Shown here: positions 34,997 through 61,531 of the stretch, one piece after another | Layout: every line of letters starts with the position of its first letter | Position numbering within the stretch: position 1 is the stretch's first letter | NCBI RefSeq assembly: GCF_030758315.1 | Contig: NZ_CP132336.1 | Span: 434,001-498,000 of the forward strand | Direction: 5' to 3' | DNA length: 64,000 nucleotides | Source of the DNA: Pararhizobium sp. IMCC3301 | GTDB taxonomy: Bacteria > Pseudomonadota > Alphaproteobacteria > Rhizobiales > GCA-2746425 | Notes under the pieces: generated by a model | What the model saw: only the letters and a program-made list of their open reading frames with translations | What the model was told of the DNA's origin: nothing | Database searches by the model: none | Made by a program: the position numbers and the translations under genes

Positions 34997-37447
34997 TTAT
35001 ACTTTGATCCGCTCCATCTTCGGATCATACAGCGCTGTGGTGTGGAGCTGTGCCGGAATGCGCACGGTGGCCACTTCCAGCTCATATTCGCCAGCCTCCA
35101 GAAACGCCTGATTGACGCCATCTGCATGGCGCACATAGCCATACCCGATTGACTTGCCGATTGTGTAGCCAAAGCCGCCGCTGGTGAGCCAGCCAACGCG
35201 TTCGCCGTTGCGATAAATCGTCTCCCGGCCGACCAGAATGGTCTCAGGGTCATCGACGGTGAAACAAGCCAGCATTTTCCGCACGCCTTCGCTTTTCTGC
35301 TGCTGGACCGCCTGGCGTCCCTTGAAATCGATGTTTTTTCTCAGTTTGACCGCCCAGCCAAGGCCGGCCTCCATCGGCGTGTGATCCGGTCCGATATCCG
35401 AGCCCCAGGCGCGGTAGCCCTTTTCCAGCCGCAGACTTTCAATTGCCCTGTATCCGGCGAGCGCAAGGCCGTGTTTTTCACCAATACCGGACAACAGATC
35501 ATAAACCCTGGTGGCATATTCGGTGGGCAGATGCAGCTCCCAGCCCAATTCACCCACATAGGTCACCCGAAGCGCGCGCACCGGACAGCCGCCAATACCG
35601 ATGGTTCTGACCGTGCCGAAACTGAAGGTGTCATTCGACACATCGTCGCGCGTCGCTTCCTGCAGGATCTGCCGGGAATTCGGCCCCATCAGCGAAAGCA
35701 CCGAATAGGCCGATGTCACATCCACCAATTGCGCATTGAGGCCTTGGGGAATATTGCGTGAGATCCAGTCGAAATCATGGGTCGCGAAACCGGTGCCGGT
35801 GACGATGTAATATTCATCCTCGGCAATCCGTGCCACCGTCAGATCGCATTCAATTCCGCCCTTTTCGTTGAGCATCTGCGTATAAATCAACGACCCGACC
35901 GGTTTTGCCACATCATTGGCGGCAATCCAGCTCAAAGCCGCTTCGGCATCCGGTCCCTTCAGAATGAATTTTGCAAATGAGGTCTGATCAAACAAGGCCG
36001 CCTGTTCACGCACGGCCTTGTGTTCTCGCCCGACCGCATCAAACCAGTTCTGCCGGCCGAAACTGTAGATGTCTTCGGGTTTTTCACCGGCTGAAAGATC
36101 GGCAAACCAGTTCGGACGCTCCCAACCGAGCTTTTCGCCGAAACTTGCGCCGGCGGATTTCAGAACCTCGTAGAGCGGCGATTTGCGGCATGGCCGCCCG
36201 CTGGAATGTTCCTCATTCGGCCAGGCCATGGTGTAGTGCTTGCCATAGGCTTCCAGCGTCCTTGTGCGGACCCAGTCCGTATCGAAATGCGGCCGCCCGA
36301 AGCGCCGGATATCGACCGGCCACAAATCATAGGGCGGTTCGCCCTTGTGGACCCATTCGGCCAGCGCCATGCCGGCACCACCGCCCGCCGCAATGCCATA
36401 GGCGTTGAAGCCGGCCCCGACATAAAAATTCGCCAGCTCCAGTGCCTCGCCAAGGATGAAATTTCCGTCAGGCGTGAAACTTTCCGGACCGTTGACCAGA
36501 TCCTTGATGCCGGCATGTTCAAACGCCGGAACGCGCTCCAGCGAGAGTTCCATCAATTGCTCGAAATGGTCAAAATTGGACCCCAGCAATGTGTAGTGAA
36601 AGCCGGAGGGAATGCCGTCGCTTGCCCAGGGTATCGGGTTCGGCTCATAGCCGCCCATTACCAGCCCGCCAACCTCTTCCTTGTAATAGGTCAGCCGGTC
36701 GGGATCGCGCAAGGTCGGCAGGCTCGAGGTCACACCATCAATCGGTTCGGTGATCATATATTGATGTTCCACCGACACCAGCGGCACGTTGACACCGACG
36801 CTGGCTGCCAGCGTCCGGCTCCACTGCCCGGCACAGCAAATTACAACTTCGCACTCAATGCGGCCCTTGTCTGTGATGACAGCCTTGATCCTGCCATTCT
36901 CCACTTCAATGGATTTCACTCCGGTGTCTTCAAGTATCCGCGCGCCTGCCATACGGGCGCCCTTGGCCAGCGACTGCGTGATATCGGAAGGATTGGCCTG
37001 GCCGTCGGTGGGCAGAAATGCCGCACCCACCACATCGTCAATGGTCATCAGCGGCCACAAATCCTGTGCTTCTTTCGGGGTCAGCAATTGCATATCGAGG
37101 CCGAAGGAATGCGCTGTCGTCGCCTGACGCTTGACCTCTGTCCAGCGTTCCTCGTTACAGGCCAGGCGCAGCCCGCCATTCATTTTCCAGCCGGTTGCCT
37201 GTCCGGTTTCCTGTTCCAGCCGGTCATACAGTTCAACGGAATATCCCAGCAGCTGGGTGATATTGGCGCTGGTGCGAAGTTGTCCGACCAGCCCTGCGGC
37301 GTGAAAAGTTGTGCCCGATGTCAACTTTTTGCGCTCCAGCAGAACCGTATCGCGCCATCCCAGCTTGGCCAGATGATAGGCCGTCGAACAGCCGACAATA
37401 CCACCGCCAATAATGACGGCTTTGGCTGTATTCGGAAAATCACTCAT
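34997..37447 (-). CDS. FAD-dependent dimethylglycine/sarcosine dehydrogenase-like oxidoreductase with GcvT domain (paralog 2)
   Basis: An 816-aa protein with the same architecture as the protein at 2197-4641: DAO-type FAD domain (VIIGGGIVGCSTAYHLAKLG), candidate covalent-FAD His49 in TSGTTFHAAGL, FAO_M-like middle part, then GCV_T and GCV_T_C. The N-terminal 50 residues are nearly the same as in paralog 1. The reaction should be oxidative N-demethylation with transfer of the one-carbon unit to tetrahydrofolate, in the cytoplasm. It lies downstream of a choline-kinase-like gene and a glycine-betaine-type ABC importer on the same strand, so a quaternary or tertiary N-methyl amine is the probable substrate class. 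The exact compound is unknown. Confidence 0.88.
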   Translation of the reverse strand: MSDFPNTAKAVIIGGGIVGCSTAYHLAKLGWRDTVLLERKKLTSGTTFHAAGLVGQLRTSANITQLLGYSVELYDRLEQETGQATGWKMNGGLRLACNEERWTEVKRQATTAHSFGLDMQLLTPKEAQDLWPLMTIDDVVGAAFLPTDGQANPSDITQSLAKGARMAGARILEDTGVKSIEVENGRIKAVITDKGRIECEVVICCAGQWSRTLAASVGVNVPLVSVEHQYMITEPIDGVTSSLPTLRDPDRLTYYKEEVGGLVMGGYEPNPIPWASDGIPSGFHYTLLGSNFDHFEQLMELSLERVPAFEHAGIKDLVNGPESFTPDGNFILGEALELANFYVGAGFNAYGIAAGGGAGMALAEWVHKGEPPYDLWPVDIRRFGRPHFDTDWVRTRTLEAYGKHYTMAWPNEEHSSGRPCRKSPLYEVLKSAGASFGEKLGWERPNWFADLSAGEKPEDIYSFGRQNWFDAVGREHKAVREQAALFDQTSFAKFILKGPDAEAALSWIAANDVAKPVGSLIYTQMLNEKGGIECDLTVARIAEDEYYIVTGTGFATHDFDWISRNIPQGLNAQLVDVTSAYSVLSLMGPNSRQILQEATRDDVSNDTFSFGTVRTIGIGGCPVRALRVTYVGELGWELHLPTEYATRVYDLLSGIGEKHGLALAGYRAIESLRLEKGYRAWGSDIGPDHTPMEAGLGWAVKLRKNIDFKGRQAVQQQKSEGVRKMLACFTVDDPETILVGRETIYRNGERVGWLTSGGFGYTIGKSIGYGYVRHADGVNQAFLEAGEYELEVATVRIPAQLHTTALYDPKMERIKV

Positions 37448-37459
37448 TCTGCCTCATCC

Positions 37460-38335
37460 TCAAGACTGTAAGAATAAATCGTAGGAAGCCTGGAACCCTG
37501 CCAGATTTTCCTCTGTATAGGCGGCGTAGTCGAAATCCAGATCGGAGTGCAGTTCGGAGACCATGCTCCACATGGTTTCGCGCAGCAGCGAGGCGCATTT
37601 CATGGCGCTGTAGCGATGCAGCAGATCGTCTGAAATTATCTGTTCAAAATAGTGCTCCAACAGCCAGATCTCGCTGCCTTCGCTAAGCTCGTTGTTGGAG
37701 GCAAGGCCACCCAGATCGAACAAGGGTGAATTGAAGCCGGCATAATCCCAATCGATCAGCCACATCCGCTCGCCATCATCGAGAAAATTGGCCGCCAGCA
37801 AATCATTATGGCCGAATATCAGATCAATTGGCGTCGAGGCCTGTTCCAGTTTTTCAGCCAATGACAACAGTAATGACACTCTTCCGGAATGGCGCGAGCC
37901 GCCCTCTAACAGGGTCGCGGCATAGTTCCGGACCACATGAAACACCCAGAATGTCAGCACCGGCCCGCGCAGATGCAGCGGGATTGTGCGGTGGCAGCAG
38001 CGGATCAGCGGCAGGATGCGTTCCAGCATGGCCGGATCGCTCACATCCTCGGCGGCCAGCGTTTTGCTGTCGATATAATCGAGGATCAGCACACCGGGTT
38101 CATGATAACGCACGGCAGGAGAGATGCCGGCTGCATGCGCCGCCTGGCTGGCTGCCAGTTCGTTGAACCGCATCACCTGATGCACTGGAATATCGTTTCC
38201 CAGCCGGGCAACATATTTGCGCCCGCCATCGCGCACCAGATAATTCACATTGGTAATGCCGCCGCCAAGCGCCGTGGCTTCAATCGGGCCGGACCAGAAG
38301 CGCAATGCCTGAAGCTGTTTCAAATGCTCTGTCAT
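37460..38335 (-). CDS. Choline-kinase-like phosphotransferase (APH superfamily), copy A
   Basis: A 291-aa APH/choline-kinase (LicA-like) protein. The Brenner-type catalytic motif is FGHNDLLAANFLDDG and the metal motif is LIDWDYAGFNSPLFDLGGL; together they match choline and ethanolamine kinases more than aminoglycoside kinases. VNYLVRDGGRKYVARLGND is the nucleotide-binding N-lobe. The ATG at 38335 begins the homologous part; an open frame reaches 38398 inside the permease gene. It sits between the betaine-type importer and FAD/GcvT paralog 2, with 12 bp to the latter. It presumably phosphorylates the imported alcohol or amine. A second copy is at 44263-45192. Confidence 0.85.
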   Translation of the reverse strand: MTEHLKQLQALRFWSGPIEATALGGGITNVNYLVRDGGRKYVARLGNDIPVHQVMRFNELAASQAAHAAGISPAVRYHEPGVLILDYIDSKTLAAEDVSDPAMLERILPLIRCCHRTIPLHLRGPVLTFWVFHVVRNYAATLLEGGSRHSGRVSLLLSLAEKLEQASTPIDLIFGHNDLLAANFLDDGERMWLIDWDYAGFNSPLFDLGGLASNNELSEGSEIWLLEHYFEQIISDDLLHRYSAMKCASLLRETMWSMVSELHSDLDFDYAAYTEENLAGFQASYDLFLQS

Positions 38336-38351
38336 GATCGCCCGCCCCGCC

Positions 38352-40354
<2,003 letters not shown>

Positions 40355-40358
<4 letters not shown>

Positions 40359-41380
40359 GAAGGAACCTCGCGCCCCACCAGAACATCGATGATGGTCGAG
40401 GGCCGGATCGAGCCGACCTTGCGGCCTTCGCCATCAACCACCAGAACCGGCGCGCCGCTGGCTTCCACCTGATCGGCAATCTCTTCGATACGCGCGCTGA
40501 CCAGCACGCTGTCCGGCCCGTCGACGATATCCTTCGACATCACGGAGCCGACGGTCAGCACCTTGGCTCTTGGAATGTGCCGGGTAAATTCGCTGACATA
40601 ATCGGTCGCCGGATGCAGCACCAGTTCTTCAGGAGTGGCAATCTGGATAATCTCGCCATCCTTCATGATGGCTATCCGGTCCGCCAGCCGGATGGCTTCA
40701 TCGAAATCATGAGTAATGAAGACGATGGTCTTGTGAAGCATCGATTGCAGGCGCAGAAACTCGTCCTGCATCTCGCGCCGGATCAGTGGATCAAGCGCCG
40801 AAAATGGTTCATCGAGGAACCACAATTCCGGCTCGACGGCGAGCGAGCGGGCGATCCCGACACGTTGCTGCTGACCGCCGGATAATTCGCGCGGATAATT
40901 CAACTCCCGCCCCGCCAGACCCACCAGTTCAATCACCTGCCGCGCCTTGGCCTCGCGACCGGTCTGGTCCATGCCCTGAACATCCAGCGGAAAGGCCACA
41001 TTGTCGAGAACCGTCAGATGCGGCAGCAGAGCAAAATGCTGGAACACCATGCCAAGCTTGTGGCGGCGTATCTCAATCAGTTCCCGTTCGGACATTTTGC
41101 GCAGGTCGACGCCCTCAAACAGCAACTCGCCTGCAGTCGGTTCAATCAGGCGCGAAATGCATCGCACGAGCGTCGATTTGCCGGAGCCTGACAGGCCCAT
41201 AATGACGAATATCTCGCCTTCCCGAACCTCGATATTGGCGTCCCGGACAGCACCGATCAGATGTGCCTTTTGCAGATCGTCCAGAGACGGTTTACCGCTG
41301 GTTCTGGCCAGAAAATCGCCGGCACCGTGTCCAAACAGCTTCCAGACATGCCGGCAGGCCAGTTTGACCGACTTTTCCAT
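40355..41380 (-). CDS. Glycine-betaine-type ABC transporter ATP-binding protein (ProV type)
   Basis: A 341-aa ATPase of the ProV/OpuAA family. Walker A GLSGSGKST, signature [20 protein letters not shown], Walker B LWFLDEPFSALDPLIR. The C-terminus (about 280-340) holds one CBS-like segment (VMSKDIVDGPDSVLVSAR and VVDGEGRKVGSIRPS), shorter than the CBS pair of ProV. The ATG at 41380 has GGGAG 6 nt before it; an open frame to 41473 is a less likely start. The operon order is binding protein, ATPase, permease, kinase, FAD/GcvT oxidoreductase. Confidence 0.9.
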
Positions 41381-41507
41381 ATATTCTCCCGGCAGCTCGG
41401 CGATGTCGACTTTGGAGGGTTGCCAGAGTAATTTCGACAGAGTTTTCTGTGCCGGGCGAACGACGCGCGGCACAAAAGGGTCGGCTTGGCATCAAGTGGC
41501 GTGAGCC

Positions 41508-42449
41508 CTACTTGATCCACTCTTGCCAGCGGGCCTCATTGGTTGTCATCCAGGCTGCCACGACATCTTCAAGCTTTTCCCCTTCCAGATCGACGTTGGC
41601 GACCATGTCACCCATTTCAGTATTGTCGACCGTGAAGGATTTGATGATGTCGTAAGCGCCGGGCCACTTGTCCTTGACACCACTCCAGGCCACTTTCCAG
41701 ATCGGACCGCGTGGCTTGCCGCAATCATAGGCCATGTCCGGATTGCCGCCCCAGGACGGATCGCTGTAACATTCCGCACTATAGGCCGGGAACTCAACGA
41801 ATTCGCCGTTGTATTTGGTCGGCGCCCAATGCGGTGCATAGACCCACAATACAATCGGTGCTTCGCGCTGATAGGCCGATTCCAGTTCGGCAAACAGCGC
41901 TGCATCGGTGCCCGCATGGACAACTTCAAAGTCCATCTCAAGCGCTTCGACACGTTCATCGTCAAACCCGCCCCAGGTGACTGGCCCGCCCAGATAACGG
42001 CCCTTTGGTGCGGTTTCCGAGGTCGCAAACACTTCAGCGCAGGCGTTCAACGCCTCCCAGTCAGGCAAGCCCGGACATTTCTCTTTCATGTAAATCGGAT
42101 ACCACCATTCCTCGATGGCCTGCATTCCGGTCTCACCCATATTTTCAACATTGCCGGTTCCGGTAGCCTCGTCCATTGCCTCCCGTCCGGTGGTTTCCCA
42201 GATTTCCATGGCGACATGCAGATCACCGGTTTTCAACCCGGCAAACTGGGCGATGTAATCCGCCTGGACATAATCGATGTTGTACCCTGCTTTTTTCAGC
42301 ACCTCGCCCATAATATTGGTTGTCAGAAGCTGACCGGTCCAATCATGCAGGGTCAGTTTGATCGGGTCCGTCGATTCCACTTGCGCGAGGGCGGGCATCG
42401 CTGCAAGGGAGAGCGCCCCTACAAGGCCGCATATCAATGAGTTTTTCAT
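41508..42449 (-). CDS. Glycine-betaine-type ABC transporter substrate-binding protein (ProX/OpuAC type)
   Basis: A 313-aa OpuAC-family periplasmic protein with a signal peptide (MKNSLICGLVGALSLAAMPA, cleaved after ALA near residue 22). Tryptophans in LTLHDWTGQLL, AMEIWETTG and LWVYAPHWAP are at positions where this family builds the aromatic cage for a quaternary ammonium group, so the ligand is probably a betaine-like or methylated amine. It is the first gene of a five-gene minus-strand operon and diverges from a DeoR regulator. Confidence 0.88.
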   Translation of the reverse strand: MKNSLICGLVGALSLAAMPALAQVESTDPIKLTLHDWTGQLLTTNIMGEVLKKAGYNIDYVQADYIAQFAGLKTGDLHVAMEIWETTGREAMDEATGTGNVENMGETGMQAIEEWWYPIYMKEKCPGLPDWEALNACAEVFATSETAPKGRYLGGPVTWGGFDDERVEALEMDFEVVHAGTDAALFAELESAYQREAPIVLWVYAPHWAPTKYNGEFVEFPAYSAECYSDPSWGGNPDMAYDCGKPRGPIWKVAWSGVKDKWPGAYDIIKSFTVDNTEMGDMVANVDLEGEKLEDVVAAWMTTNEARWQEWIK

Positions 42450-42554
42450 TCACGTCTCCAAGCCGATAAGTTCAAAACAAGAACTGCTGGTTCATTCACA
42501 CTTCAAAGCTTTGGCTAATTCCCCCGCCCCGTCAATATTGATGTCACACAAATT

Positions 42555-42584
42555 GTTGGTTTTTGCTGTTTTTTGTTGTTTTTT
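42555..42584. promoter_or_regulatory. Three 10-bp phased direct repeats upstream of the first DeoR gene
   Basis: GTTGGTTTTT, GCTGTTTTTT and GTTGTTTTTT start at 42555, 42565 and 42575, exactly one helical turn apart, in the 209-bp gap between the divergent ProX-type and DeoR genes. A perfect palindrome TCAATATTGA is at 42532-42541. The same half-sites with the same phasing occur before the second DeoR gene (47691-47728), so DeoR binding is likely (inference). Confidence 0.55.
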
Positions 42585-42658
42585 ATGTGGGAATAAGGCT
42601 TATCGATCCATAAAACTGGCTTCAGGTTGTGCCGCAGGCAGGCCTGTCGGAGAGAAAA

Positions 42659-43495
42659 ATGACGAGAATCCGAGCAGTGGAACCGATGTTTCAGCATACC
42701 AATCACAGGGAACGGGAAATCCTCGAAACTCTCAGGCAGCATGGCGGCTCATGCCGCATTCAATGGCTGGCCGAAACTCTCAACGTTTCAGAAGAAACCA
42801 TTCGCCGCAACGTCAAGACACTGGCCAGTGCCGGTGCCGTGCGCAAGGTTCATGGCGGCGTGCACATCATCGGAGGCCACGTTGAACAGCCCTTCAACAC
42901 AAGGTTTTCTGAAAACGCGTTTCAGAAACAGGCGATTGCAGATCATGTCGCGAAAATCATCTGCTCCGGCGACACATTGTTTCTCGATATCGGCTCCACC
43001 ACCGCCCACATCGCTGCCGCGCTGCAGAGCCATCGCGATCTGTTTGTCGTCACCAACTCAATGCTGGTGGCGCAATCCCTCGCCTCCCGCAACAACAACC
43101 GCGTGTTTCTGGCCGGCGGCGAATTGCGCGCTCATGATGGCGGCGCGTTTGGCAAGGAAGCACTTGAGTATGTCAAGCAGTTCAACGTCCAATATGCCAT
43201 TTTGTCGGTCGCCGCGATAAATGCCTCTGCCGGTTTCATGCTGCATGATATTGCGGAGGCGGAATTTTCCAGAGAAATCTCGTCCCGAGCCCGGATTCGC
43301 ATCGTTGCCGCAGACAGCGCCAAATTCAACAAATCCGGCCCCATCATTCTGTCACATCCCTCCGATTTCGATATGCTTGTCAGCGACCGGATGCCGCCGC
43401 CGGATATCTGCCGGATGCTGGCTGACAATGAAGTGGATCTGGTTCTGACAGAAGACCAGCGTGGCCAGCGCCACACGAATAACAAGGCGGGCTGA
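42659..43495 (+). CDS. DeoR/GlpR-family transcriptional repressor, copy A
   Basis: A 278-aa DeoR protein. The HTH (about 16-70) has HREREILETLRQHGG, VSEETIRRNVKTLASAGAV and the family end RKVHGG. The C-terminal DeoRC sugar-phosphate sensor domain (about 90-255) contains DTLFLDIGSTTAHIAAAL. DeoRC domains are related to sugar-phosphate isomerases and normally bind phosphorylated ligands, which fits the kinases in this cluster. The ATG at 42659 follows GGAGAG; an open frame from 42629 is less likely. It ends 3 bp before the IMPase-like gene. Confidence 0.88.
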   Translation: MTRIRAVEPMFQHTNHREREILETLRQHGGSCRIQWLAETLNVSEETIRRNVKTLASAGAVRKVHGGVHIIGGHVEQPFNTRFSENAFQKQAIADHVAKIICSGDTLFLDIGSTTAHIAAALQSHRDLFVVTNSMLVAQSLASRNNNRVFLAGGELRAHDGGAFGKEALEYVKQFNVQYAILSVAAINASAGFMLHDIAEAEFSREISSRARIRIVAADSAKFNKSGPIILSHPSDFDMLVSDRMPPPDICRMLADNEVDLVLTEDQRGQRHTNNKAG

Positions 43496-43498
43496 CTT

Positions 43499-44266
43499 AT
43501 GAATGATATGATGACAGAGGCGTTGCGCATCAGCGCTGCTGCCTGCGCCATTCCAAAACGCTATTTCCGTTCAAGTCTCTCAATTGATCAAAAAAGCGAT
43601 GAAAGCCCGGTCACCATTGTCGACCGGGAAACCGAGGAATTTCTCAGACGCGAATTGCTGGCGCAGTTTCCTGATCATGGCATCTTTGGCGAGGAATTCG
43701 GCCGCCAGAGCGGCGACAGCGCCTATGAATGGATCATCGACCCGATTGACGGCACCCGCTCCTTCATCAGCGGTAATCCGCTTTACGGCATGTTGCTGGC
43801 CTTGCTGCGCAATAGCGAACCGGTGTTCGGCATCGTGCGAATGCCGGAACTGGAAGAAGTCTATACCGGCACCAGCGGAACCGCGTTTCGCAATGGCACC
43901 GAACCGCTGGCAGTCTCTCAAACCCGCGATCTGTCGGACGCCGCCATTTACATCAATGAAGGCGAGAAAATCCACGCAGCGCACCCGGCACTGTTTCAGC
44001 GTCTCTGCAAAACCGGCCAATTGCGGCGGTTCGCCTATGATTGCTATCCCCACATGCTGCTTGCAGCCGGCCACATAGACGCGGTGATCGATTTTGACCT
44101 TCAGCCCTATGATTATCTGCCGCTGGTCTGTGTCGTGAAGGGTGCCGGCGGCATCATGACCGACTGGCAGGGCGAAAATCTGACGCTGCGCTCCGATGGC
44201 CGGGTCATCAGCGCCGCTACACCGGAACTGCACAAAACTTTACTGGAGCTGGTGCAAGCCGGCTAA
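43499..44266 (+). CDS. Inositol-monophosphatase-family phosphatase (HisN-like)
   Basis: A 255-aa magnesium-dependent phosphatase of the IMPase superfamily. Metal-binding motifs are intact: Glu-Glu in HGIFGEEFG, IDPIDGTRSFISG, and the C-terminal DFDLQPYDYLPLVCVVKGAGG in place of the usual WD-x-AA segment. The GEEFG and DPIDGTRSF forms resemble histidinol-phosphate phosphatases (HisN). It follows the DeoR repressor by 3 bp and overlaps the convergent kinase gene by 4 bp. The pairing with two choline-kinase-like enzymes suggests that it dephosphorylates an intermediate of this pathway rather than making histidine (inference). Confidence 0.85.
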   Translation: MNDMMTEALRISAAACAIPKRYFRSSLSIDQKSDESPVTIVDRETEEFLRRELLAQFPDHGIFGEEFGRQSGDSAYEWIIDPIDGTRSFISGNPLYGMLLALLRNSEPVFGIVRMPELEEVYTGTSGTAFRNGTEPLAVSQTRDLSDAAIYINEGEKIHAAHPALFQRLCKTGQLRRFAYDCYPHMLLAAGHIDAVIDFDLQPYDYLPLVCVVKGAGGIMTDWQGENLTLRSDGRVISAATPELHKTLLELVQAG

Positions 44267-45192
44267 CCGGTTCTGATCGCATCAAGTTGTTGGGCGAACT
44301 CCGGGCTTTGCATCAACGCCTTGCAGCGTTCAAACCGGTTGACAGAATAGGTCCAGAAATCATCCGCCGGGTTGTTGTCGGCATGCTGAATCAGGCCCCA
44401 CAGCGTCCATAACAGATCACACATCGCCTTGTAGACGATCATGCGGCCAAAGTCCGCGTCCGTCGGCTGGCCATCGAAATAGGCCTGCATCATCGCCTGG
44501 TCCTGCTCCTTGCTGAATTCGGCCTCGACCGACAGATCTCCCAGATCCCACATCGGGTCATTCATGCCGGAATACTCCCAGTCGACGATCCACATGCGTG
44601 TGCCATCATCGAGGAAATTTTCGCAAAGCGGATCGCAATGACACGGTGCAAGTTCCGCTGGATTGGTCGAGAGAACGTCTTTCACCGGGTGTGCCGCTTC
44701 AACAATTTCAAAATAGCCATCCGGCAGTTGAGCATCCTTTCCGGCCAGTATCTTCAGATAGTCATCAATCATCGAGAACAGCTCGAAGCGGAACCGGAAA
44801 ATTTGGCCGGATTGATGCAGCATCCTGAATGCCAGCGCTGCGCGCTGCGGCGCACCTGCCCGGCTGCGGAACAAATCCGGCGTCATGGTGACGATATTGT
44901 CGATGCACCGGCTGATCATCAGACCGGCCGCCGCATCGGCCCAGATTACCTCTGCCGAGACGCCCGCAGATGCGGCGGCCCGTGCATTGTGCAACTCCAC
45001 CGCCCGGTCGATATAATCCTCGGTGCCTTTTCCCGGAATGCGGACAATGAGTGTTTCATCGTCAAGCTCCACCCGGTGCACCAGATTGGTGAGACCGCCA
45101 AGCCGGACAATCTGATCGGCGTTCAGTGATACCTGGGAAAACCGCGGCACATTGCGAAGCGCCTGTTGAACAATTTCGGTATATTCGCTCAT
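44263..45192 (-). CDS. Choline-kinase-like phosphotransferase (APH superfamily), copy B
   Basis: A 309-aa LicA/choline-kinase-like protein. The catalytic motif is CHCDPLCENFLDDGTRMWIV and continues DWEYSGMNDPMWDLGDLSVE; LTNLVHRVELDDETLIVRIP is the N-lobe. It is clearly related to the protein at 37460-38335 but diverged. It lies 25 bp downstream of FAD/GcvT paralog 3 on the same strand, so each of the two paralogs in this region has its own kinase. The substrate is unknown; choline, ethanolamine or a hydroxylated amine are candidates. Confidence 0.86.
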   Translation of the reverse strand: MSEYTEIVQQALRNVPRFSQVSLNADQIVRLGGLTNLVHRVELDDETLIVRIPGKGTEDYIDRAVELHNARAAASAGVSAEVIWADAAAGLMISRCIDNIVTMTPDLFRSRAGAPQRAALAFRMLHQSGQIFRFRFELFSMIDDYLKILAGKDAQLPDGYFEIVEAAHPVKDVLSTNPAELAPCHCDPLCENFLDDGTRMWIVDWEYSGMNDPMWDLGDLSVEAEFSKEQDQAMMQAYFDGQPTDADFGRMIVYKAMCDLLWTLWGLIQHADNNPADDFWTYSVNRFERCKALMQSPEFAQQLDAIRTG

Positions 45193-45217
45193 GGCTTTCC
45201 CTTCATGCTTTCAGGCT

Positions 45218-47647
45218 TCATGCTTTCAGACGTTCATTGTCCGGGTCGTAAAGCGGCGCGGCAACGCGCCTGATCTTATGCAACTCTCCCATAGCCTCAA
45301 GCTCGAAATCCTCCCGCTCCGCCAGAGCTCCTGACAAATACCCCAGAATGATGGTTTTCTCCACGCTTGTGCCATAACCGGCACTGGTCGCCAGAGACAC
45401 AACCTCACCATCGGCCAGAATGGTTTCCCCGCCAAACAGCGGCAGGTCCGCATCGCACACAAAGCAGCATAATTTGCGATCCGTGCCCTCCTGCTTCTGG
45501 CGTTGCAGAACGCTACGGCCGAGAAAATCTCCCTTCGACTTCAAATGCACCCGCCCGGCCAGACCCGCCTCAACCGGCGTGTAATCCGGCGTGATATCGG
45601 CGCTCCAGTAGAGATAGGCTTTTTCCAGCCTCAGCGTGTCAATCGCCCGGTAGCCAATATCCCGAATGCCAAACGGCTGGCCGGCATCCCACAACAGATC
45701 ATAGACATGCTGGGCAAATTCCGTCGGCACATGCAGTTCCCAGCCCAGTTCCCCGACATATCCGATGCGGACAGCGCGCAGCAGCGCAGCGCCGATGGTC
45801 AGGCGCTGCATGGTTGCAAACGGAAACGCCTCATTCGATACATCATCGTCGCTGGCAGCTTGCAGAACGTCTCTGGCCTTTGGGCCGCACAGATTGATCA
45901 CCGCCCAGCCGGATGTGACTTCCACCAGCACCACCGAGCCGTCGGGCGGCAGATTGCGCCTGATCCAGTCGCCATCATGAACCCCGAACCCGGCTCCGGT
46001 GATGATGTAAAAATGATCCAGTGCAAGACGCGTAATCGTGACATCTGCCTCAATACCGCCGCGCTCATTGCAAAGCTGGGTATAGATCACCGACCCGATC
46101 GGCTTGTCCATATTCGACACGGCAAGGCGCTGCAGCGCCGCAAGCGCGCCCTGCCCGACCAGTTCAAATTTTGAAAAACTGCTCTGGTCAACCAGCGCTA
46201 CGGCGCTACGCACGGCCTTGTGCTCCTCGGCGACAAACCGTTTCCAGCCCGGTTTCAGGAAATCCAGCTGATCGACCGGCTCCACACCTTGCGGTGCAAA
46301 CCAGAGCGGTCGTTCCCAGCCGTTCTTCGCGCCGTAAACCGCTCCTTTAGCCTTTAACCGGTCATAGAGCGGGCTTTTGCGAAGATCGCGGGCAACGCTG
46401 CTTTCCTGGCCCGGATAGCGCATTTTGTAATGATGTGCATAATGCTCCACAGCGCGGGGATACATGTAATGGCGCGTGCCCTGATGCGGCCCGAAGCGGC
46501 GCACATCCAGAGGCCATAAATCCAGTCCCGGCCGGCCTTCGACCAGCCATTCGGCAATCATTTCGCCAGCGCCGCCACCAGCAGCAATGCCGTAGAGGAA
46601 CCCGGTCGCCAGCATCAGGTTCTTGAAATCCGGCACCGGACCCATGACAAAGTCGCCATCTGCCGAATAGGGTATCGGGCCGTTGATGATCTGGCGGATA
46701 CCGACCTCATTGACAATCGGCGTGACCTGCGCCGCATGGGCTGCCAGCGGTTCAAAGCGGTCGAGATTTTCCGGCAGCAACTGGCGGACAAAATCACCCG
46801 GAATGCCGTGTTCGCCAAACGGCACCGTGTCGTCCTCATAACCGCCAATCACCAGCCGGCCGCCGGCATCCGGCTTGTAGTAAACCAGCCGGTCCGGATC
46901 GCGCAATGTCGGCAGCCCCTCGGGAAAGCCCGGTATCGGCTCTGTCACGATATATTGGTGTTCCACCGCGCAGGCCGGGATCAACAGGCCAAGTTTGTGC
47001 CCCAACTCCCGGCTCCACATGCCACTGGCAAGGGTGACAGTTTCGGCCTCATAATCGCCGCCAGAGGTCATCACCTTTGTAATTCGGCCATTGCTGACTT
47101 CAAAATCATGCACCGTGATTCCCTGGCGAAGCTGCGCGCCATGCATCCGCGCACCAGCAGCAATCGACTGGCACAGGCTCGCCGGATCGACATGACCATC
47201 GGAAGGAATATAGGCAGCCCCGGTCAGCCCGTCGGTGTTGATATAGGGAAACAGGATTTTTGCCTCCTGCGGCGAGATAATCTGCATCTCCAGACCGAAA
47301 CTCCGGGCCATGGTGGCCAGCCGCCGGGCTTCCAGCAGCCGCTCCTGAGACGCCGCAAGGCGCAGGCTTCCGACTTTCTTCCAGTCACAGGCAAGGCCGG
47401 TTTCCGCTTCCAGCCGGTCATACAGCGCCACCGAGCGCTGCAGCATGCGTGTCGTGTTGCGGCTGGAACGCAATTGCCCCACCAACCCGGCCGCATGCCA
47501 TGTCGCGCCTTCGGTCAGCGCGGCTTTTTCCAGCAGCACAACATCCTTCTCACCGGATCTGGCCAGATGATAGGCGATTGAACAGCCAATGATGCCGCCG
47601 CCGATGATGAGATGTTTGGCAGAATGCCGGGGAGATGTTTCAGTCAT
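45218..47647 (-). CDS. FAD-dependent dimethylglycine/sarcosine dehydrogenase-like oxidoreductase with GcvT domain (paralog 3)
   Basis: An 809-aa protein with the same domain series as the other two paralogs: FAD domain starting LIIGGGIIGCSIAYHLARSG, candidate covalent-FAD His51 in TEGATWHAAGL, FAO_M-like part, GCV_T and GCV_T_C. The ATG at 47647 (AAAGG about 10 nt before it) is preferred to an upstream start at 47698 that would add 17 residues and run into the operator region. The binding-pocket stretches differ from paralog 2 (for example MATGFLYGIAAGGGAGEM-like region ATGFLYGIAAGGGAG versus GAGFNAYGIAAGGGAG), so a related but different substrate is likely. Confidence 0.87.
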   Translation of the reverse strand: MTETSPRHSAKHLIIGGGIIGCSIAYHLARSGEKDVVLLEKAALTEGATWHAAGLVGQLRSSRNTTRMLQRSVALYDRLEAETGLACDWKKVGSLRLAASQERLLEARRLATMARSFGLEMQIISPQEAKILFPYINTDGLTGAAYIPSDGHVDPASLCQSIAAGARMHGAQLRQGITVHDFEVSNGRITKVMTSGGDYEAETVTLASGMWSRELGHKLGLLIPACAVEHQYIVTEPIPGFPEGLPTLRDPDRLVYYKPDAGGRLVIGGYEDDTVPFGEHGIPGDFVRQLLPENLDRFEPLAAHAAQVTPIVNEVGIRQIINGPIPYSADGDFVMGPVPDFKNLMLATGFLYGIAAGGGAGEMIAEWLVEGRPGLDLWPLDVRRFGPHQGTRHYMYPRAVEHYAHHYKMRYPGQESSVARDLRKSPLYDRLKAKGAVYGAKNGWERPLWFAPQGVEPVDQLDFLKPGWKRFVAEEHKAVRSAVALVDQSSFSKFELVGQGALAALQRLAVSNMDKPIGSVIYTQLCNERGGIEADVTITRLALDHFYIITGAGFGVHDGDWIRRNLPPDGSVVLVEVTSGWAVINLCGPKARDVLQAASDDDVSNEAFPFATMQRLTIGAALLRAVRIGYVGELGWELHVPTEFAQHVYDLLWDAGQPFGIRDIGYRAIDTLRLEKAYLYWSADITPDYTPVEAGLAGRVHLKSKGDFLGRSVLQRQKQEGTDRKLCCFVCDADLPLFGGETILADGEVVSLATSAGYGTSVEKTIILGYLSGALAEREDFELEAMGELHKIRRVAAPLYDPDNERLKA

Positions 47648-47690
47648 GTCAGGGCACCTTTGGCCGGGATTCGCCAAATTATGCATCCAA

Positions 47691-47728
47691 ATCAACATTT
47701 TTCAACTTTTTTGTTGATTTATGTTGAT
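47691..47728. promoter_or_regulatory. Dyad of four 10-bp phased half-sites before the second DeoR gene
   Basis: CAAC at 47693 and 47703 and GTTG at 47713 and 47723 are all exactly 10 nt apart and form a dyad. The reverse complement of ATCAACATTTTTCAAC (47691-47706) matches GTTGATTTATGTTGAT (47713-47728) at 14 of 16 positions. It lies between the divergent FAD/GcvT paralog 3 and DeoR genes, the natural operator for both. Confidence 0.65.
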
Positions 47729-47756
47729 ATAACATAGGTTGAGGGAGTGATCCGGA

Positions 47757-48518
47757 ATGACCATGTCAAAATACGAACAGGATATTCGAAATGCGGTCGC
47801 ACTGCGCGGTTCGGTCAGCGTTGGCGAACTGGCCGAATTGCTGCAGGTTTCCGACCAGACCATTCGCCGCATCGTCAGGCCGATGGTGGATCGCGGCGAA
47901 GTGGAAAAGGTGCATGGCGCAATTGTCAGCATGCAGAGCCTCATCGACCCGCCCTTTCTGGCGCGTATGAACCGCAACAAACAGGCCAAGATTGCCATTG
48001 CCAACAGGGTCGCGCAGATGATCCAGCCGGGCGATGCAATCGCCATCGACACCGGCTCAACATCGGCCTTCGTGGCGCAGGCGCTGCGCCAGCACCAGGA
48101 TCTGACCATCGTTACCAATTCAACCTTTATTGCCAGTACCCTGGCCATGGTTCCGGGAAACCGTGTCTATATGGCCGGCTCGGAGCTGCGCAGTCATGAT
48201 GGCGCCGCTTTCGATCAGGCCGCATATCGCACAATTGCGGCGCATCATACCAAATGGGCGCTGCTGTCCGCCTCTTCTGTGCATCCCCAACGCGGCTTTC
48301 TGGTGCAGGAACAATGCGAAGCTGACATGTGCTCGGCGCTGATGGACATCGCCGACCATCACGTCTGGGCCATCGATGCCTCAAAATTCACCGACACTCA
48401 GGTCCAGCTCCGCCTGCCGAAACCCGTGCCGGGCAGTACACTGACGACAGATCAAAAGCCCGGCCAGGCCTATTTTCCCATCCTGGCGCAGCTGACAGTT
48501 GAAGTGACTGATGCCTGA
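47757..48518 (+). CDS. DeoR/GlpR-family transcriptional repressor, copy B
   Basis: A 253-aa DeoR protein. The HTH (about 5-60) has SVGELAELLQVSDQTIRRIV and ends EKVHGA. The DeoRC domain (about 75-235) has GDAIAIDTGSTSAFVAQALR. It is related to the protein at 42659-43495 in both parts. It is divergent from FAD/GcvT paralog 3 with a phased dyad between them, and probably represses that operon until a phosphorylated ligand binds. The C-terminal Pro-rich segment (about 220-240) is unusual. Confidence 0.87.
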   Translation: MTMSKYEQDIRNAVALRGSVSVGELAELLQVSDQTIRRIVRPMVDRGEVEKVHGAIVSMQSLIDPPFLARMNRNKQAKIAIANRVAQMIQPGDAIAIDTGSTSAFVAQALRQHQDLTIVTNSTFIASTLAMVPGNRVYMAGSELRSHDGAAFDQAAYRTIAAHHTKWALLSASSVHPQRGFLVQEQCEADMCSALMDIADHHVWAIDASKFTDTQVQLRLPKPVPGSTLTTDQKPGQAYFPILAQLTVEVTDA

Positions 48519-48765: not shown

Positions 48766-50038
48766 CCACTACTGTCCGGTTTAACTTTCAGCATCATAAC
48801 AGCACCATCTGGTGGCTGTTTTTTATGGGTATTGGATCAGGCATCAGCAGGCGATCAATTTGTTTTCGGTGCATGAGATTTGCTCGAATGATGCGGGCGA
48901 AAGCCAAGGGCGTTTTGATGGTCGTCTGGGTTTTCTGTGCAAACCGCAACAGCAGGAAGGCAATGAGGGCCACGGCGATTTGAATGCGCAGTGCGTTTTC
49001 ACTGCGCCCCACACAATGGCGGATTTTCAGAGTTTGCTTGACCCATTTGAAGAACAGTTCAATGGCCCATCGCTGCTTGTAGAGATCGGCGATTTCCTGC
49101 GCCGAGGCATCAAGGTCGTTGCTTAAAATGCGGAGAACCTTGCCGGTTGGGGTTTTGAGTTGTACCTCGCGTACCGGGTCGGTGAACCGGGTCTTGCCGT
49201 TTTTGGTTCTTTGCGGCAGAAGGCCGATACGGTCCAACAGGATGTCGCCGCCTTCGGGCACATCCAGAACCACCGTTTCCTTCAGCGTTGTATTCTTCTT
49301 GAGCCGGGTGACAATCCGGCACCCTGCCTGATCCAGCGTGGCCCACCAGTTAAAGTCATAATATCCCAAGTCAAAAACATAAGTGGCACCCGGTTCAACA
49401 GGCATGGCTTTGGCGGGTGTAATGTCATTGACATTGGCAGCGCTCACCTGAGCATAGACGGGATACTCGGCATTGGCATCATAGATGATATGTGCTTTGG
49501 CACCGCAAGCCTTGTGGGAAAAGTGGGCCCATTGCGAGCCCATGCCGGACAAGCTTATACCGGTTGCATCAATCAGATAGGTGGCATCTGCGATCTTGCG
49601 CCGCATCCCGCGGCCTGCTCGTGCTGCAAGAGTGGCAAACAGGTCAGTAAAAACCTCGCTTGGCCGGGTGGCATTGGCATCAGCCAATGTGGAGCGCTGA
49701 ACTGGACGGCTTCCCAGATGATAAAGACGGTTTTGGTGGCTGGCCAGCCCGCCAACAAGCTCGCGCAGACTGACAGCGCCTGAAAACTGCGCGTAGAGCA
49801 TGGCAATAAACTGATCTTTCGTACTCAACCGGCGAATACGATGATCGGATTGGTGCTTGTCCACAAGCCGATTAAACACGCCCCAGGGAACATGCTTCAA
49901 TATCTCGTGAAATACGCTATTCTCATGCCGCATGGTGTTGACCTCTACTTCGTGTCCATAACGTTCGCTAAACCGTTGGAAACAAGTAGAATCAATACCA
50001 TGCAACATGTCCACCGATTTTAAACCGGACACCAGTGG
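48766..50038 (-). mobile_element. IS4-family insertion sequence, complete, 1273 bp
   Basis: Terminal inverted repeats are CCACTACTGTCCGGTTTAA at the left (48766-48784) and CCACTGGTGTCCGGTTTAA read inward from the right (50020-50038), 17 of 19 matching. A 7-bp duplication ACTTGTT flanks the element. It carries one intact transposase gene. It is inserted in the loop of an intergenic palindrome, so no gene is broken. Confidence 0.88.
48794..49933 (-). CDS. IS4-family transposase with DUF4372 N-terminus
   Basis: A 379-aa DDE transposase. The N-terminal DUF4372 segment has HENSVFHEILKHVPWGVFNR and QFIAMLYAQFSGAVSLRELV. The acidic triad falls in YLIDATGISL, YVFDLGYYDF and YKQRWAIELFFKWVKQ; the last is the Y-x2-R-x3-E-x6-K signature of IS4 elements. 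The ATG at 49933 has AGAGG about 8 nt before it; an open frame continues to a GTG at 50032 inside the inverted repeat and is less likely. The gene is intact, so the element may be active. Confidence 0.92.
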   Translation of the reverse strand: MRHENSVFHEILKHVPWGVFNRLVDKHQSDHRIRRLSTKDQFIAMLYAQFSGAVSLRELVGGLASHQNRLYHLGSRPVQRSTLADANATRPSEVFTDLFATLAARAGRGMRRKIADATYLIDATGISLSGMGSQWAHFSHKACGAKAHIIYDANAEYPVYAQVSAANVNDITPAKAMPVEPGATYVFDLGYYDFNWWATLDQAGCRIVTRLKKNTTLKETVVLDVPEGGDILLDRIGLLPQRTKNGKTRFTDPVREVQLKTPTGKVLRILSNDLDASAQEIADLYKQRWAIELFFKWVKQTLKIRHCVGRSENALRIQIAVALIAFLLLRFAQKTQTTIKTPLAFARIIRANLMHRKQIDRLLMPDPIPIKNSHQMVLL

Positions 50039-54058: not shown

Positions 54059-54115
54059 AGCACATTTTTTGAATATTGAATCATCGCCTGAAGCTGCAAA
54101 AACGGAATGTTTGTC

Positions 54116-56440: not shown

Positions 56441-56500
56441 GGCGCTTTTTCAACCGAGATTGACGTCAAGCGGTTGTCATTCGCAAGATGTGCACCATAG

Positions 56501-56530
56501 CTGGATCCTCGGAACAAGTCCGAGGACGAC
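56501..56530 (+). repeat. Intergenic palindromic repeat, copy 3
   Basis: CTGGATCCTCGG-AACAAGT-CCGAGGACGAC, the same unit as at 48.59 kb with C/T differences that keep the stem paired. It is preceded by the same ATGTGCACCATAGCT-type extension. Confidence 0.75.
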
Positions 56531-56645
56531 GCTGGAGGGGTGCCAGGAAAGACCGGAAACGTGAATTCTTCCCAATCCCCTCCTACTCAGACCAATTCCC
56601 GCCATCCTCAACCCAATCCCGTCGGCCTCGCACCAAACCCGTCTT

Positions 56646-56670
56646 CCTCGGACTTGTTCCGAGGATCCAG
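56646..56670 (-). repeat. Intergenic palindromic repeat, copy 4
   Basis: CCTCGGA-CTTGT-TCCGAGG followed by ATCCAG, in inverse orientation to copy 3 and about 115 bp away. The pair repeats the arrangement of copies 1 and 2. Confidence 0.75.
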
Positions 56671-56732
56671 ATTTACCGCGCGATGTCCGGTCTCCTCGCA
56701 ACCTTCCGGCACATAGCGAACCGGCAAAAGTC

Positions 56733-57089: not shown

Positions 57090-57165
57090 GTCATGTTTTC
57101 CTTTGCGTTGCGAAGGTGAGTTGGCCCGAACCCAATATGGCCTGTGCCCGGCGTCTGCTCGCCTT

Positions 57166-57648: not shown

Positions 57649-57826
57649 GGTGGTCCCTCATTATGCGTATTGATCGTCCGCGCAACAGCGCTAAAGGGCA
57701 ACGCCAGAGCGCAGAACTGGTTCCCGAGTTTCTGGACCCCGTCCTGCAAGCCGGAAGGAATGGAATTTGATCTGACACAGAAGTTTAGCTCTGGATGCCG
57801 CCTCACAGATTCCGAACAGCCTGAAG

Positions 57827-61500: not shown

Positions 61501-61531
61501 GGTCAAGCAATGCGGAATACAAAATTACCAG

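What the first reader, a model, noticed from the sequence alone, without database searches (positions are those of the whole stretch)
34997..48518. Candidate undescribed pathway: two FAD/GcvT demethylases, two choline-kinase-like enzymes, an IMPase and a betaine importer under two DeoR repressors
Seen: each of two FAD/GcvT oxidoreductases has its own LicA-like kinase and its own divergent DeoR-family gene; one half adds a betaine-type importer, and an IMPase-like phosphatase follows DeoR. Known: DMGDH-type enzymes demethylate N-methyl amines without any phosphorylation step, and DeoRC domains usually sense sugar or polyol phosphates. Inference: an imported methylated amine carrying a hydroxyl group is phosphorylated, demethylated, then dephosphorylated, with the phosphorylated form acting as inducer. 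I know of no pathway with this enzyme set.
Basis: partly seen in the sequence, partly recalled or inferred. Interest (0 to 1): 0.8.

Follow-up and report, generated by a model that had tools for sequence, protein, structure and literature searches.

The report
Paired kinase and demethylase catabolic operon
This stretch holds a conserved but apparently undescribed set of genes that look built to import a small methylated amine, phosphorylate it with choline-kinase-like enzymes and strip off its methyl groups, which would be a new way for bacteria to feed on choline-like compounds.

Summary
In detail: window 34997-48518 encodes two FAD/GcvT demethylases, two LicA-type kinases, a TmoX/ProVW-type importer, a HisN/IMPase-like phosphatase and two DeoR regulators. 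The set is conserved. Of the 80 KIN2 loci kept (of 299 found), 69 carry a FAD/GcvT gene. Of the 48 with at least 9.5 kb on both sides, 44 do, 35 within 600 bp of KIN2; 4 more have a FAD-only enzyme there. All 46 KIN1 genes in these loci lie within 600 bp of such a flavoenzyme. KIN2 keeps the LicA choline cage in 81 of 81 sequences; KIN1 has lost part of it in 45 of 45. The binding protein keeps four of seven TmoX pocket residues. In one gammaproteobacterial relative a phosphoethanolamine-methyltransferase-like gene follows DeoR-1. Plasmids of Rhizobiaceae and Paracoccus carry a sister kinase/phosphatase/DeoR set with ethanolamine ammonia-lyase instead of demethylases. Best reading: catabolism of an N-methylated ethanolamine-type alcohol through phosphorylated intermediates. 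Substrate, order of steps and product fate are inferred; EutB is absent from all 15 KIN2 genomes in the class sample, host included. Text searches listed no description of the operon.

The parts
34997..37447 (-). FAD1: DMGDH-type FAD / GcvT demethylase
   Evidence: Pfam DAO 237 bits, GCV_T 276 bits; DMGDH 4p9s 561 bits, with the His of covalent FAD and the His/Tyr dyad positions kept; own clade, support 100/99
37460..38398 (-). KIN1: LicA-like kinase with an altered pocket (possible start about 38335)
   Evidence: Choline_kinase 61 bits; 3dxq 78 bits, LicA 64 bits; Glu213 to Asn in 45 of 45, Arg273 and Glu274 invariant in 45 of 45
38352..40358 (-). fused double ProW-type permease
   Evidence: two BPD_transp_1 stretches; ABC_choXWV_perm 408 bits, over the 363 cut-off
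40355..41473 (-). ProV-type ATPase
   Evidence: TIGR01186 proV 348 bits, over the 326.6 cut-off
41508..42449 (-). TmoX-like substrate-binding protein
   Evidence: OpuAC 162 bits; 4xz6 (TmoX) 262 bits; pocket residues in orthologs
42450..42628 (.). divergent promoter region between the binding-protein gene and DeoR-1
   Evidence: G/T-rich repeats; DeoR-2-type motif with up to 3 mismatches in 6 of 31 such regions, shuffled mean 0.5; this window only with 4 mismatches
42629..43495 (+). DeoR-1 (DeoR/GlpR-family regulator)
   Evidence: DeoRC 147 bits, HTH_DeoR 50 bits
43499..44266 (+). HisN/IMPase-like phosphatase
   Evidence: Inositol_P 168 bits; HisN TIGR02067 244 bits, below cut-off; 39-46% identity to the phosphatases of three sister plasmid operons
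44263..45192 (-). KIN2: kinase with a LicA-type choline pocket
   Evidence: 3dxq 382 bits, LicA 128 bits; LicA choline contacts kept in 81 of 81 except Val178 (Leu in 80, Val in 1)
45218..47698 (-). FAD2: second DMGDH-type demethylase (possible start about 47647)
   Evidence: Pfam DAO 247, GCV_T 265 bits; human DMGDH 5l46 503 bits; 49% identity to FAD1; separate clade
47691..47728 (.). putative DeoR-2 operator: inverted pair of GTTGAWWWATGTTGAT
   Evidence: the only two exact copies in the 4.58 Mb genome; motif with up to 3 mismatches in 10 of 10 DeoR2-FAD2 gaps of other loci (shuffled mean 0.05 for the 11 gaps with the window)
47757..48518 (+). DeoR-2
   Evidence: DeoRC 113 bits; 37% identity to DeoR-1

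Best explanation
An inducible catabolic pathway for a small N-methylated, hydroxyl-bearing amine, most likely of the ethanolamine type (for example dimethyl- or monomethyl-ethanolamine). A TmoX-like ABC importer brings it in. LicA-type kinases phosphorylate the hydroxyl: KIN2 has a complete choline-type pocket, KIN1 an altered one. Two DMGDH-type flavoenzymes, one beside each kinase, oxidise successive N-methyl groups and hand the carbon to tetrahydrofolate as methylene-THF. A HisN/IMPase-like (elsewhere perhaps a HAD) phosphatase then frees the amino alcohol. A phosphorylated intermediate probably relieves DeoR repression. SHOWN by sequence: the gene set and its conservation, the pocket residues of kinases and binding protein, the catalytic residues of the flavoenzymes, a conserved motif in the DeoR-2/FAD2 gap. 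INFERRED: substrate, order of steps, inducer, fate of the product.
For: Association: among the 48 loci with at least 9.5 kb on both sides of KIN2, a FAD/GcvT gene lies in 44, within 600 bp of KIN2 in 35, and 4 more have a FAD-only enzyme there; 69 of all 80 loci carry one; 46 of 46 KIN1 genes lie within 600 bp of a flavoenzyme (45 reach the folate domain, one is cut by the contig end). At least three gene arrangements. KIN2 keeps Thr29, Asp176, Tyr197, Glu213, Trp251, Trp254 and Tyr268 of the LicA choline site in 81 of 81. The binding protein keeps Trp55, Trp102, Glu131 and Trp177 of the TmoX site, with Phe106 to Gly/Ala, Phe220 to Trp and Trp222 to Tyr. FAD1 and FAD2 keep the covalent-FAD His and the His/Tyr dyad. 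Phosphobase link: in L051 a methyltransferase closest to phosphoethanolamine N-methyltransferases (170 bits to 5wp4) follows DeoR-1, divergent from SBP-PROV-PERM-KIN1-FAD1-KIN2. Ethanolamine link: sister operons kinase-kinase with HisN/IMPase, DeoR and EutB-EutC. Phosphatase step: in three loci a HAD-family gene follows KIN2. DeoR-2 motif in 10 of 10 other gaps.
Against: EutB is in 0 of 15 KIN2 genomes, although 31 of 387 class genomes have it (expected 1.2, p 0.62, so weak); the host lacks it. Of the host's four glutamine-synthetase-family genes three were scanned: one is GlnA, two lie side by side near polyamine-type ABC genes; none is an evident ethanolamine enzyme, so the fate of ethanolamine in the host is unexplained. 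KIN1 lacks part of the cage in 45 of 45. The phosphatase is in only 11 of 48 long-flank loci. 11 of 80 KIN2 loci show no FAD/GcvT gene, 4 of them with long flanks. In nine loci KIN2 stands beside a methyltransferase gene, which this reading does not explain. A flavin amine dehydrogenase cannot act on a quaternary amine such as choline itself (established chemistry), although the importer and KIN2 pockets would suit one.
Confidence: 0.42

Rival explanations
1. Demethylation first, phosphorylation second: the flavoenzymes act on the free imported amine, and the kinases trap the demethylated alcohol as a phosphoethanolamine-type product for assimilation or as DeoR inducer.
For: DMGDH-type enzymes need no phosphate (established); the flavoenzymes keep the DMGDH catalytic dyad.
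Against: A phosphatase gene accompanies the set in several lineages, which would undo the trapping; each kinase stands beside its own flavoenzyme (46 of 46 KIN1), which suggests that the flavoenzyme needs a phosphorylated substrate.
Confidence: 0.22
2. The substrate is not an ethanolamine but a hydroxylated N-methyl amino acid or betaine-type osmolyte; KIN1, with invariant Arg and Glu in its pocket region, phosphorylates a zwitterion.
For: KIN1 Glu213 to Asn and invariant Arg273-Glu274 in 45 of 45; DMGDH-type enzymes normally act on N-methyl amino acids (established); TmoX-type pocket with Phe106 to Gly or Ala in 56 of 56.
Against: KIN2 keeps a choline pocket in 81 of 81; the PMT-like neighbour and EutBC in sister operons point to aminoethanol chemistry.
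Confidence: 0.2
3. Two unrelated functions share an island: choline import and phosphocholine making (KIN2), and ordinary dimethylglycine/sarcosine demethylation of the betaine pathway (FAD1, FAD2).
For: LicA makes phosphocholine (PMC4364537, passages); DMGDH is the closest solved relative of both flavoenzymes; a GbdR-like regulator (292 bits, below its 480 cut-off) stands beside FAD2-KIN2 in L014.
Against: Pairing kept through rearrangements; FAD1 and FAD2 are two separate clades that travel with the kinases. I did not search for bet, gbc or licC genes; none was listed in the annotated plasmid neighbourhoods L092, L093, L095, L096 and L097.
Confidence: 0.12

Closest known systems
LicA choline kinase (S. 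pneumoniae, 4r77/4r78) and Mesorhizobium loti 3DXQ
   Same: KIN2 is a close homolog of 3DXQ (382 bits) and keeps the LicA choline contacts; PMC4364537 (passages) says the biochemistry of 3DXQ has not been elucidated
   Different: LicA serves cell-wall phosphorylcholine; KIN1 and KIN2 sit in apparent catabolic operons with demethylases
Dimethylglycine dehydrogenase/oxidase (5l46, 4p9s, 1pj5)
   Same: domain order, covalent-FAD His, catalytic His/Tyr positions, folate domain
   Different: kinase neighbour in the loci examined; separate clades FAD1 and FAD2; substrate untested
TmoX importer and Tdm of the TMAO pathway (Ruegeria)
   Same: binding protein related to TmoX, with four of its seven pocket residues including the Glu
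   Different: Phe106 to Gly/Ala, Phe220 to Trp, Trp222 to Tyr; no TMAO demethylase in the window operon
Phosphobase methylation (PMT) pathway of plants and parasites
   Same: inferred intermediates, phosphorylated methyl-ethanolamines; a PMT-like gene beside the operon in L051
   Different: here methyl groups would be removed, not added
Kinase-kinase operons on Rhizobium/Agrobacterium/Shinella/Paracoccus/Acidisoma plasmids (L091, L094, L098, L099)
   Same: two LicA-like kinases and DeoR in all four, a related phosphatase annotated in three (not L099)
   Different: hydrolases (Zn-dependent hydrolase in all four, amidase in two) in place of demethylases; another importer type; EutBC inside two of them
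Gamma-glutamyl ethanolamine pathway with EtoX (Phaeobacter, PMC10132767, passages)
   Same: ethanolamine as nutrient in marine bacteria of a class that also holds our set
   Different: TRAP importer; the passages seen name no kinase and no demethylase

Membership tests
LicA-type choline kinase (KIN2) | residues Thr29, Asp176, Asn181, Asp194, Glu196, Tyr197, Glu213, Trp251, Trp254, Tyr268 | tested here: met
   all kept in 81 of 81 (residues from PMC4364537; mapped through)
LicA-type choline kinase (KIN2) | phosphorylates choline | not testable with these tools
   no assay possible
LicA-type choline kinase (KIN1) | intact choline cage | tested here: not met
   Glu213 to Asn 45 of 45; one cage Trp lost in either alignment register: Trp251 to Glu (3dxq/MAFFT register) or Trp254 to Val/Thr/Ala/Ile (LicA pairwise register)
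Dimethylglycine dehydrogenase (FAD1, FAD2) | covalent-FAD His, catalytic His/Tyr dyad, GcvT folate domain | tested here: met
   aligned to 5l46, 4p9s and 1pj5; domains. His225/Tyr259 come from a reference title in PMC5082570 and count out correctly on the 1pj5 chain; that the aligned His is His91 of human DMGDH rests on my own offset
Dimethylglycine dehydrogenase (FAD1, FAD2) | oxidises dimethylglycine | not testable with these tools
   no assay
TmoX TMAO-binding protein | pocket Trp55, Trp102, Phe106, Glu131, Trp177, Phe220, Trp222 | tested here: not met
   four of seven kept; Phe106 to Gly/Ala, Phe220 to Trp, Trp222 to Tyr in 56 of 56: TmoX-like, not TmoX
HisN histidinol-phosphatase (TIGR02067) | score above the curated cut-off | tested here: not met
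   244 against 275 bits; IMPase family membership met (Inositol_P 168 bits)
DeoR/GlpR regulators | HTH_DeoR plus DeoRC domains | tested here: met
   both proteins
DeoR/GlpR regulators | operator beside the gene | tested here: inconclusive
   conserved motif for DeoR-2 in 10 of 10 other gaps, binding untested; DeoR-1 motif only weakly defined
EutBC ethanolamine catabolism | EutB in the same genome | tested here: not met
   0 of 15 KIN2 genomes, host none
Guanitoxin-pathway kinase GntI (NF041256) | score above the curated cut-off | tested here: not met
   127 (KIN1) and 149 bits (KIN2) against 357, although it is the best NCBIfam model for both kinases

The most novel reading that the evidence does not exclude
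A catabolic mirror image of the phosphobase methylation pathway: bacteria phosphorylate N-methylated ethanolamines and then strip the methyl groups one by one with dedicated flavin/folate enzymes (P-dimethylethanolamine to P-methylethanolamine to P-ethanolamine), harvesting C1 units, with the phosphobase itself as the inducer sensed by DeoR. The kinase-phosphatase-DeoR part would be a reusable module: phosphorylate a substituted ethanolamine, remove the N-substituent by demethylase or by hydrolase, dephosphorylate.
Probability: 0.3. Interest if true: 0.75.

Novelty: new variant of a known kind. Interest (0 to 1): 0.55.

Why it matters
Methylated amines and choline headgroups are important dissolved nitrogen and C1 sources in the sea, and many of the named carriers of this set (Roseovarius, Sulfitobacter, Labrenzia, Amylibacter, Kiloniellaceae) belong to groups that I know as marine (recalled). 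A demethylation route through phosphorylated amino alcohols would add an unrecognised branch to choline-type catabolism, give a likely function to the orphan crystal structure 3DXQ, and explain kinases annotated as choline/ethanolamine kinase beside DMGDH-like genes (for example).

Tried and rejected
Ethanolamine ammonia-lyase as the fate of the product: not supported for the host and for 15 of 15 KIN2 genomes. Gamma-glutamylation of ethanolamine in the host: of four glutamine-synthetase-family genes I scanned three: one at 545 kb is GlnA; two side by side at 3527-3530 kb score below every cut-off shown and lie near a class III aminotransferase and putrescine-type ABC genes. The fourth (3183 kb) was not read. 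No candidate is evident, none is excluded.

PhnW (2-aminoethylphosphonate transaminase) as a next enzyme: it stands in the importer block of L030 and L032 and occurs in 12 of 15 KIN2 genomes against 72 of 372 others (p 1.4e-6; by genus 7 of 10 against 51 of 254, p 0.0012). But the host's copy sits in an ordinary aminoethylphosphonate cluster, and related genomes share both, so lifestyle or kinship explains it as well. My first comparison used 27 controls taken partly from the EutB list, 3 with PhnW; I replaced it by the class-wide count.

The DeoR-2 motif gave 22 places in the host with up to 2 mismatches (control 1), only the two in the window exact; I did not follow the others. One region (L111) was fetched and not analysed. 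Structure prediction and fold search were not used. My first ORF picking by length gave shadow ORFs in GC-rich loci; it was replaced by tblastn and conservation-weighted picking. The gene-family clustering needs 35% identity and can miss divergent or shadowed neighbours. In the tree one row labelled FAD2 (L071_17626) is an unrelated paralog, and I used every second FAD1 and FAD2 sequence that had no stop and was longer than 700 aa. In one search I first read Trp254 to Val in KIN1; the alignments to 3dxq and by MAFFT put the loss at Trp251, so I give both. A recount split my 39 of 48 'FAD/GcvT within 600 bp' into 35 FAD/GcvT and 4 FAD-only enzymes.

Papers: passages seen of PMC4364537, PMC8918994, PMC10132767 and PMC5082570; all others only as search listings. 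Six searches aimed at the pathway, three at its parts; no listed title or abstract opening describes this operon. Lists were capped: 20 of 234 shown, 15 of 528, 12 of 31, 12 of 17. The library lacks most subscription journals.
Full report
OBSERVATION. Two divergent halves exist: DeoR-1 (42629, +) faces SBP-ProV-ProWW-KIN1-FAD1 (-), and DeoR-2 (47757, +) faces FAD2-KIN2 (-). The phosphatase gene follows DeoR-1. The window lies at C1:434001-498000 of a 4.58-Mb single-contig genome with 10 strong and 3 weak GcvT-domain matches. Among the eight of these whose loci were compared, FAD1 and FAD2 are each other's closest relatives (49% identity); a third one in the window, 2197-4641, is 45% and 41% identical to them.

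CONSERVATION. One scan with KIN2 gave 299 related stretches, of which the tool kept the best 80: mostly Alphaproteobacteria, a few Gammaproteobacteria; the nearest is Rhizobiales bacterium IMCC20636 (78% for KIN2). In these 80 loci, many cut by contig ends, tblastn (over 80 bits, paralogs not removed) finds ProV in 59, FAD2 58, SBP 56, permease 55, FAD1 54, KIN1 46, DeoR-1 33, phosphatase 16 and DeoR-2 12. In the 48 loci with at least 9.5 kb on each side of KIN2, a FAD/GcvT gene lies in 44; it is within 600 bp of KIN2 in 35, and in 4 more a FAD-only enzyme is. Two or more flavoenzyme matches are in 35, SBP in 42, KIN1 in 36 and the phosphatase (stricter score limit) in 11. All 46 KIN1 genes have a flavoenzyme within 600 bp; 45 reach the folate domain and one is cut by its contig end. 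The loci were chosen by KIN2 similarity and are related to one another, so these are not independent events. But the order differs: a window-like order (L011, L012, L022, L024, L033, L042, L059), one run SBP-ProV-ProWW-KIN1-FAD1-FAD2-KIN2 (for example L019, L031, L044, L061), and a divergent form (L013, L016, L029, L035). Outside the core set the most frequent neighbour family found is in 9 of 80 loci. Against: 11 of the 80 loci show no FAD/GcvT gene; 7 have a short flank, 4 (L030, L032, L046, L083) do not. In L030 and L026, two of the 11, a FAD-only DAO-type gene is next to KIN2 (family scan of the L030 one).

SUBSTITUTIONS INSIDE THE SET. In L031, L044 and L082 a HAD-family hydrolase gene follows KIN2 (of these only the L044 protein was scanned, where it passes the cut-off of the general HAD-SF-IA-v1 model). 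In L043, L065, L069 and L090 the place of FAD2 is taken by a flavoenzyme match covering only the FAD domain; the one scanned, L090, is a DAO protein of about 415 aa without a folate domain. In nine loci a SAM-dependent methyltransferase gene (c0) is divergent from and next to KIN2; I cannot explain it. So a flavin amine oxidoreductase beside a kinase is the usual feature, while the THF domain and the phosphatase vary.

KINASE POCKETS. PMC4364537 (passages) gives the LicA choline site: Thr29, Asp176, Val178, Tyr197, Glu213, Trp251, Trp254, Tyr268; it also says that the biochemistry of 3DXQ, the closest solved relative of KIN2, has not been elucidated. Mapped through the alignment and counted on the window protein plus 80 orthologs, KIN2 keeps all of them except Val178 (Leu in 80, Val in 1). 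KIN1 keeps Asp176, Asn181, Asp194 and Tyr197 in 45 of 45, but has Asn for Glu213 in 45 of 45 and an invariant Arg273-Glu274. One cage tryptophan is lost; whether Trp251 or Trp254 depends on the alignment register. By pocket KIN2 is a choline-type amine kinase; KIN1 probably has another substrate.

IMPORTER. The binding protein's best solved relative is 4xz6, TmoX. Of the seven pocket residues listed in PMC8918994 (passages) it keeps Trp55 and Glu131 (55 of 56 each, the remaining one a gap or unknown), Trp102 and Trp177 (56 of 56); Phe106 is Gly (52) or Ala (4), Phe220 is Trp and Trp222 is Tyr in 56 of 56. This would suit a methylated amine somewhat larger than TMAO (inference).

FLAVOENZYMES. 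Both align over most of their length with dimethylglycine dehydrogenase and oxidase. They keep the His aligned with the FAD-carrying His of human DMGDH (His91 in PMC5082570, passages; the position on the chain is my own count) and the positions His225 and Tyr259 of the oxidase dyad, which count out on the 1pj5 chain (numbers from a reference title). FAD1 orthologs form one group (25 rows, 100/99); FAD2 orthologs another (25 rows, 100/99), with one mislabelled paralog outside; the third window gene groups with FAD1 on a long branch. Flavin amine dehydrogenases of this type act on tertiary or secondary amines, so choline itself cannot be their substrate (established chemistry).

LINKS TO ETHANOLAMINE CHEMISTRY. 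(i) In L051 (Granulosicoccaceae) a methyltransferase whose best solved relatives are phosphoethanolamine N-methyltransferases (170 bits to 5wp4) follows DeoR-1, divergent from SBP-ProV-ProWW-KIN1-FAD1-KIN2. Its cluster mates lie next to KIN2 in L079 and one gene away in L047 but were not searched one by one. (ii) A tblastn of KIN2 against plasmids led to a sister operon: on Paracoccus yeei (L094) DeoR, IMPase, ABC genes, hydrolase, kinase, kinase, EutB, EutC; on Shinella sumterensis (L098) DeoR, hydrolase, kinase, kinase, HisN, EutB, EutC; on pRi1724 (L091) DeoR, hydrolase, kinase, kinase, HisN, DeoR, with EutB about 11 kb away; on Acidisoma (L099) DeoR, ABC genes, hydrolase, kinase, kinase, with neither phosphatase nor EutB annotated. 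Three of its phosphatases are 39-46% identical to the window's, and its second kinase is 27-31% identical to KIN2 and keeps the LicA cage, with Ser for Thr29 and Leu or Met for Val178, in the four examples read. Of the 60 listed KinB records (of 83) at least 27 have EutB 792-801 bp away among the 60 listed EutB records (of 124); many are near-identical Agrobacterium plasmids. This system has hydrolases where ours has demethylases, which suggests a shared module for phosphorylated, N-substituted ethanolamines. That is inference.

REGULATION. The DeoR-2/FAD2 gap holds an inverted pair of GTTGAWWWATGTTGAT. The motif, taken from the window, is found with up to 3 mismatches in 10 of 10 such gaps of other loci (shuffled mean 0.05 for the 11 gaps with the window), and in 6 of 31 DeoR1-SBP gaps (shuffled mean 0.5; not in the window's own). 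The only two exact copies in the genome are both here. That DeoR-2 binds it and controls FAD2-KIN2 is inferred.

EVIDENCE AGAINST. Over 387 class genomes KIN2 (E up to 1e-60) is in 15 and EutB in 31, with no overlap (expected 1.2, p 0.62). The host has no EutB, and in the three of its four glutamine-synthetase-family genes that I scanned I saw no evident ethanolamine enzyme, so what becomes of ethanolamine there is open; the gain might be the C1 units alone. PhnW is enriched in KIN2 genomes (12 of 15 against 72 of 372), but the host copy is in a normal aminoethylphosphonate cluster.

VERDICT. The gene set is real and conserved and, as far as nine full-text searches of the held library show in their capped listings (six aimed at the pathway, three at its parts), undescribed. 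I commit to phosphorylation-coupled demethylation of an N-methylated ethanolamine-type alcohol at 0.42, with demethylation first (0.22) and a hydroxylated amino acid or betaine (0.20) as main rivals. All parts belong to known families; the combination appears new, hence new variant of a known kind.

Noticed in passing
L091, L094, L098, L099 (plasmids): Operons with two LicA-like kinases, DeoR, a Zn-dependent hydrolase, a HisN/IMPase-like phosphatase (three of the four) and in two of them EutBC, on Rhizobium/Shinella/Paracoccus/Acidisoma plasmids including pRi1724; substrate unknown.
   Followed up: partly
L030 3199-10900, L032 3223-10921: In two alphaproteobacterial MAG/single-cell records the TmoX-like importer stands with a PhnW transaminase, a ureidoglycolate-lyase-like protein, an SDR and KIN2, without FAD/GcvT: perhaps a phosphonate or unmethylated variant.
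   Followed up: partly
L046, L052, L066, L072, L075, L076, L083, L084, L088: A SAM-dependent methyltransferase gene (c0) divergent from and next to KIN2 in nine loci, in several of them without FAD2.
   Followed up: partly
L097 3330-9763: On Salipiger plasmid pPABY1 an importer and a TMAO-demethylase-like gene (1074 bits, just under the 1100 cut-off) lie near DeoR-FAD-kinase genes of the FAD2-KIN2 type.
   Followed up: no
window 2197-4641: A third DMGDH-like FAD/GcvT gene; a homology search of the host found only KIN1 and KIN2 as kinases of this family, so it has no such kinase beside it.
   Followed up: no
window 48794-50032: IS4-family transposase directly beside DeoR-2.
   Followed up: no
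window 58672-63988: A MobA/VirD2-type relaxase with a helicase-type AAA domain and an 818-aa ankyrin-repeat protein: a mobile-element-like neighbourhood beyond the cluster.
   Followed up: no
window 54107-57870: A 777-aa protein with a DUF3604 match (30 bits) after a TRAP transporter, and a 260-aa protein without a Pfam match at E up to 1e-6.
   Followed up: no
L112 11434-13023: Choline-sulfatase gene close to the host's aminoethylphosphonate cluster (PhnW, PhnA, phosphonoacetaldehyde dehydrogenase).
   Followed up: no
L093 9900-11252: In the Shinella pShin-01 cluster a metal/formaldehyde-sensitive repressor and a DmeF efflux gene sit between the FAD enzyme and KIN2.
   Followed up: no
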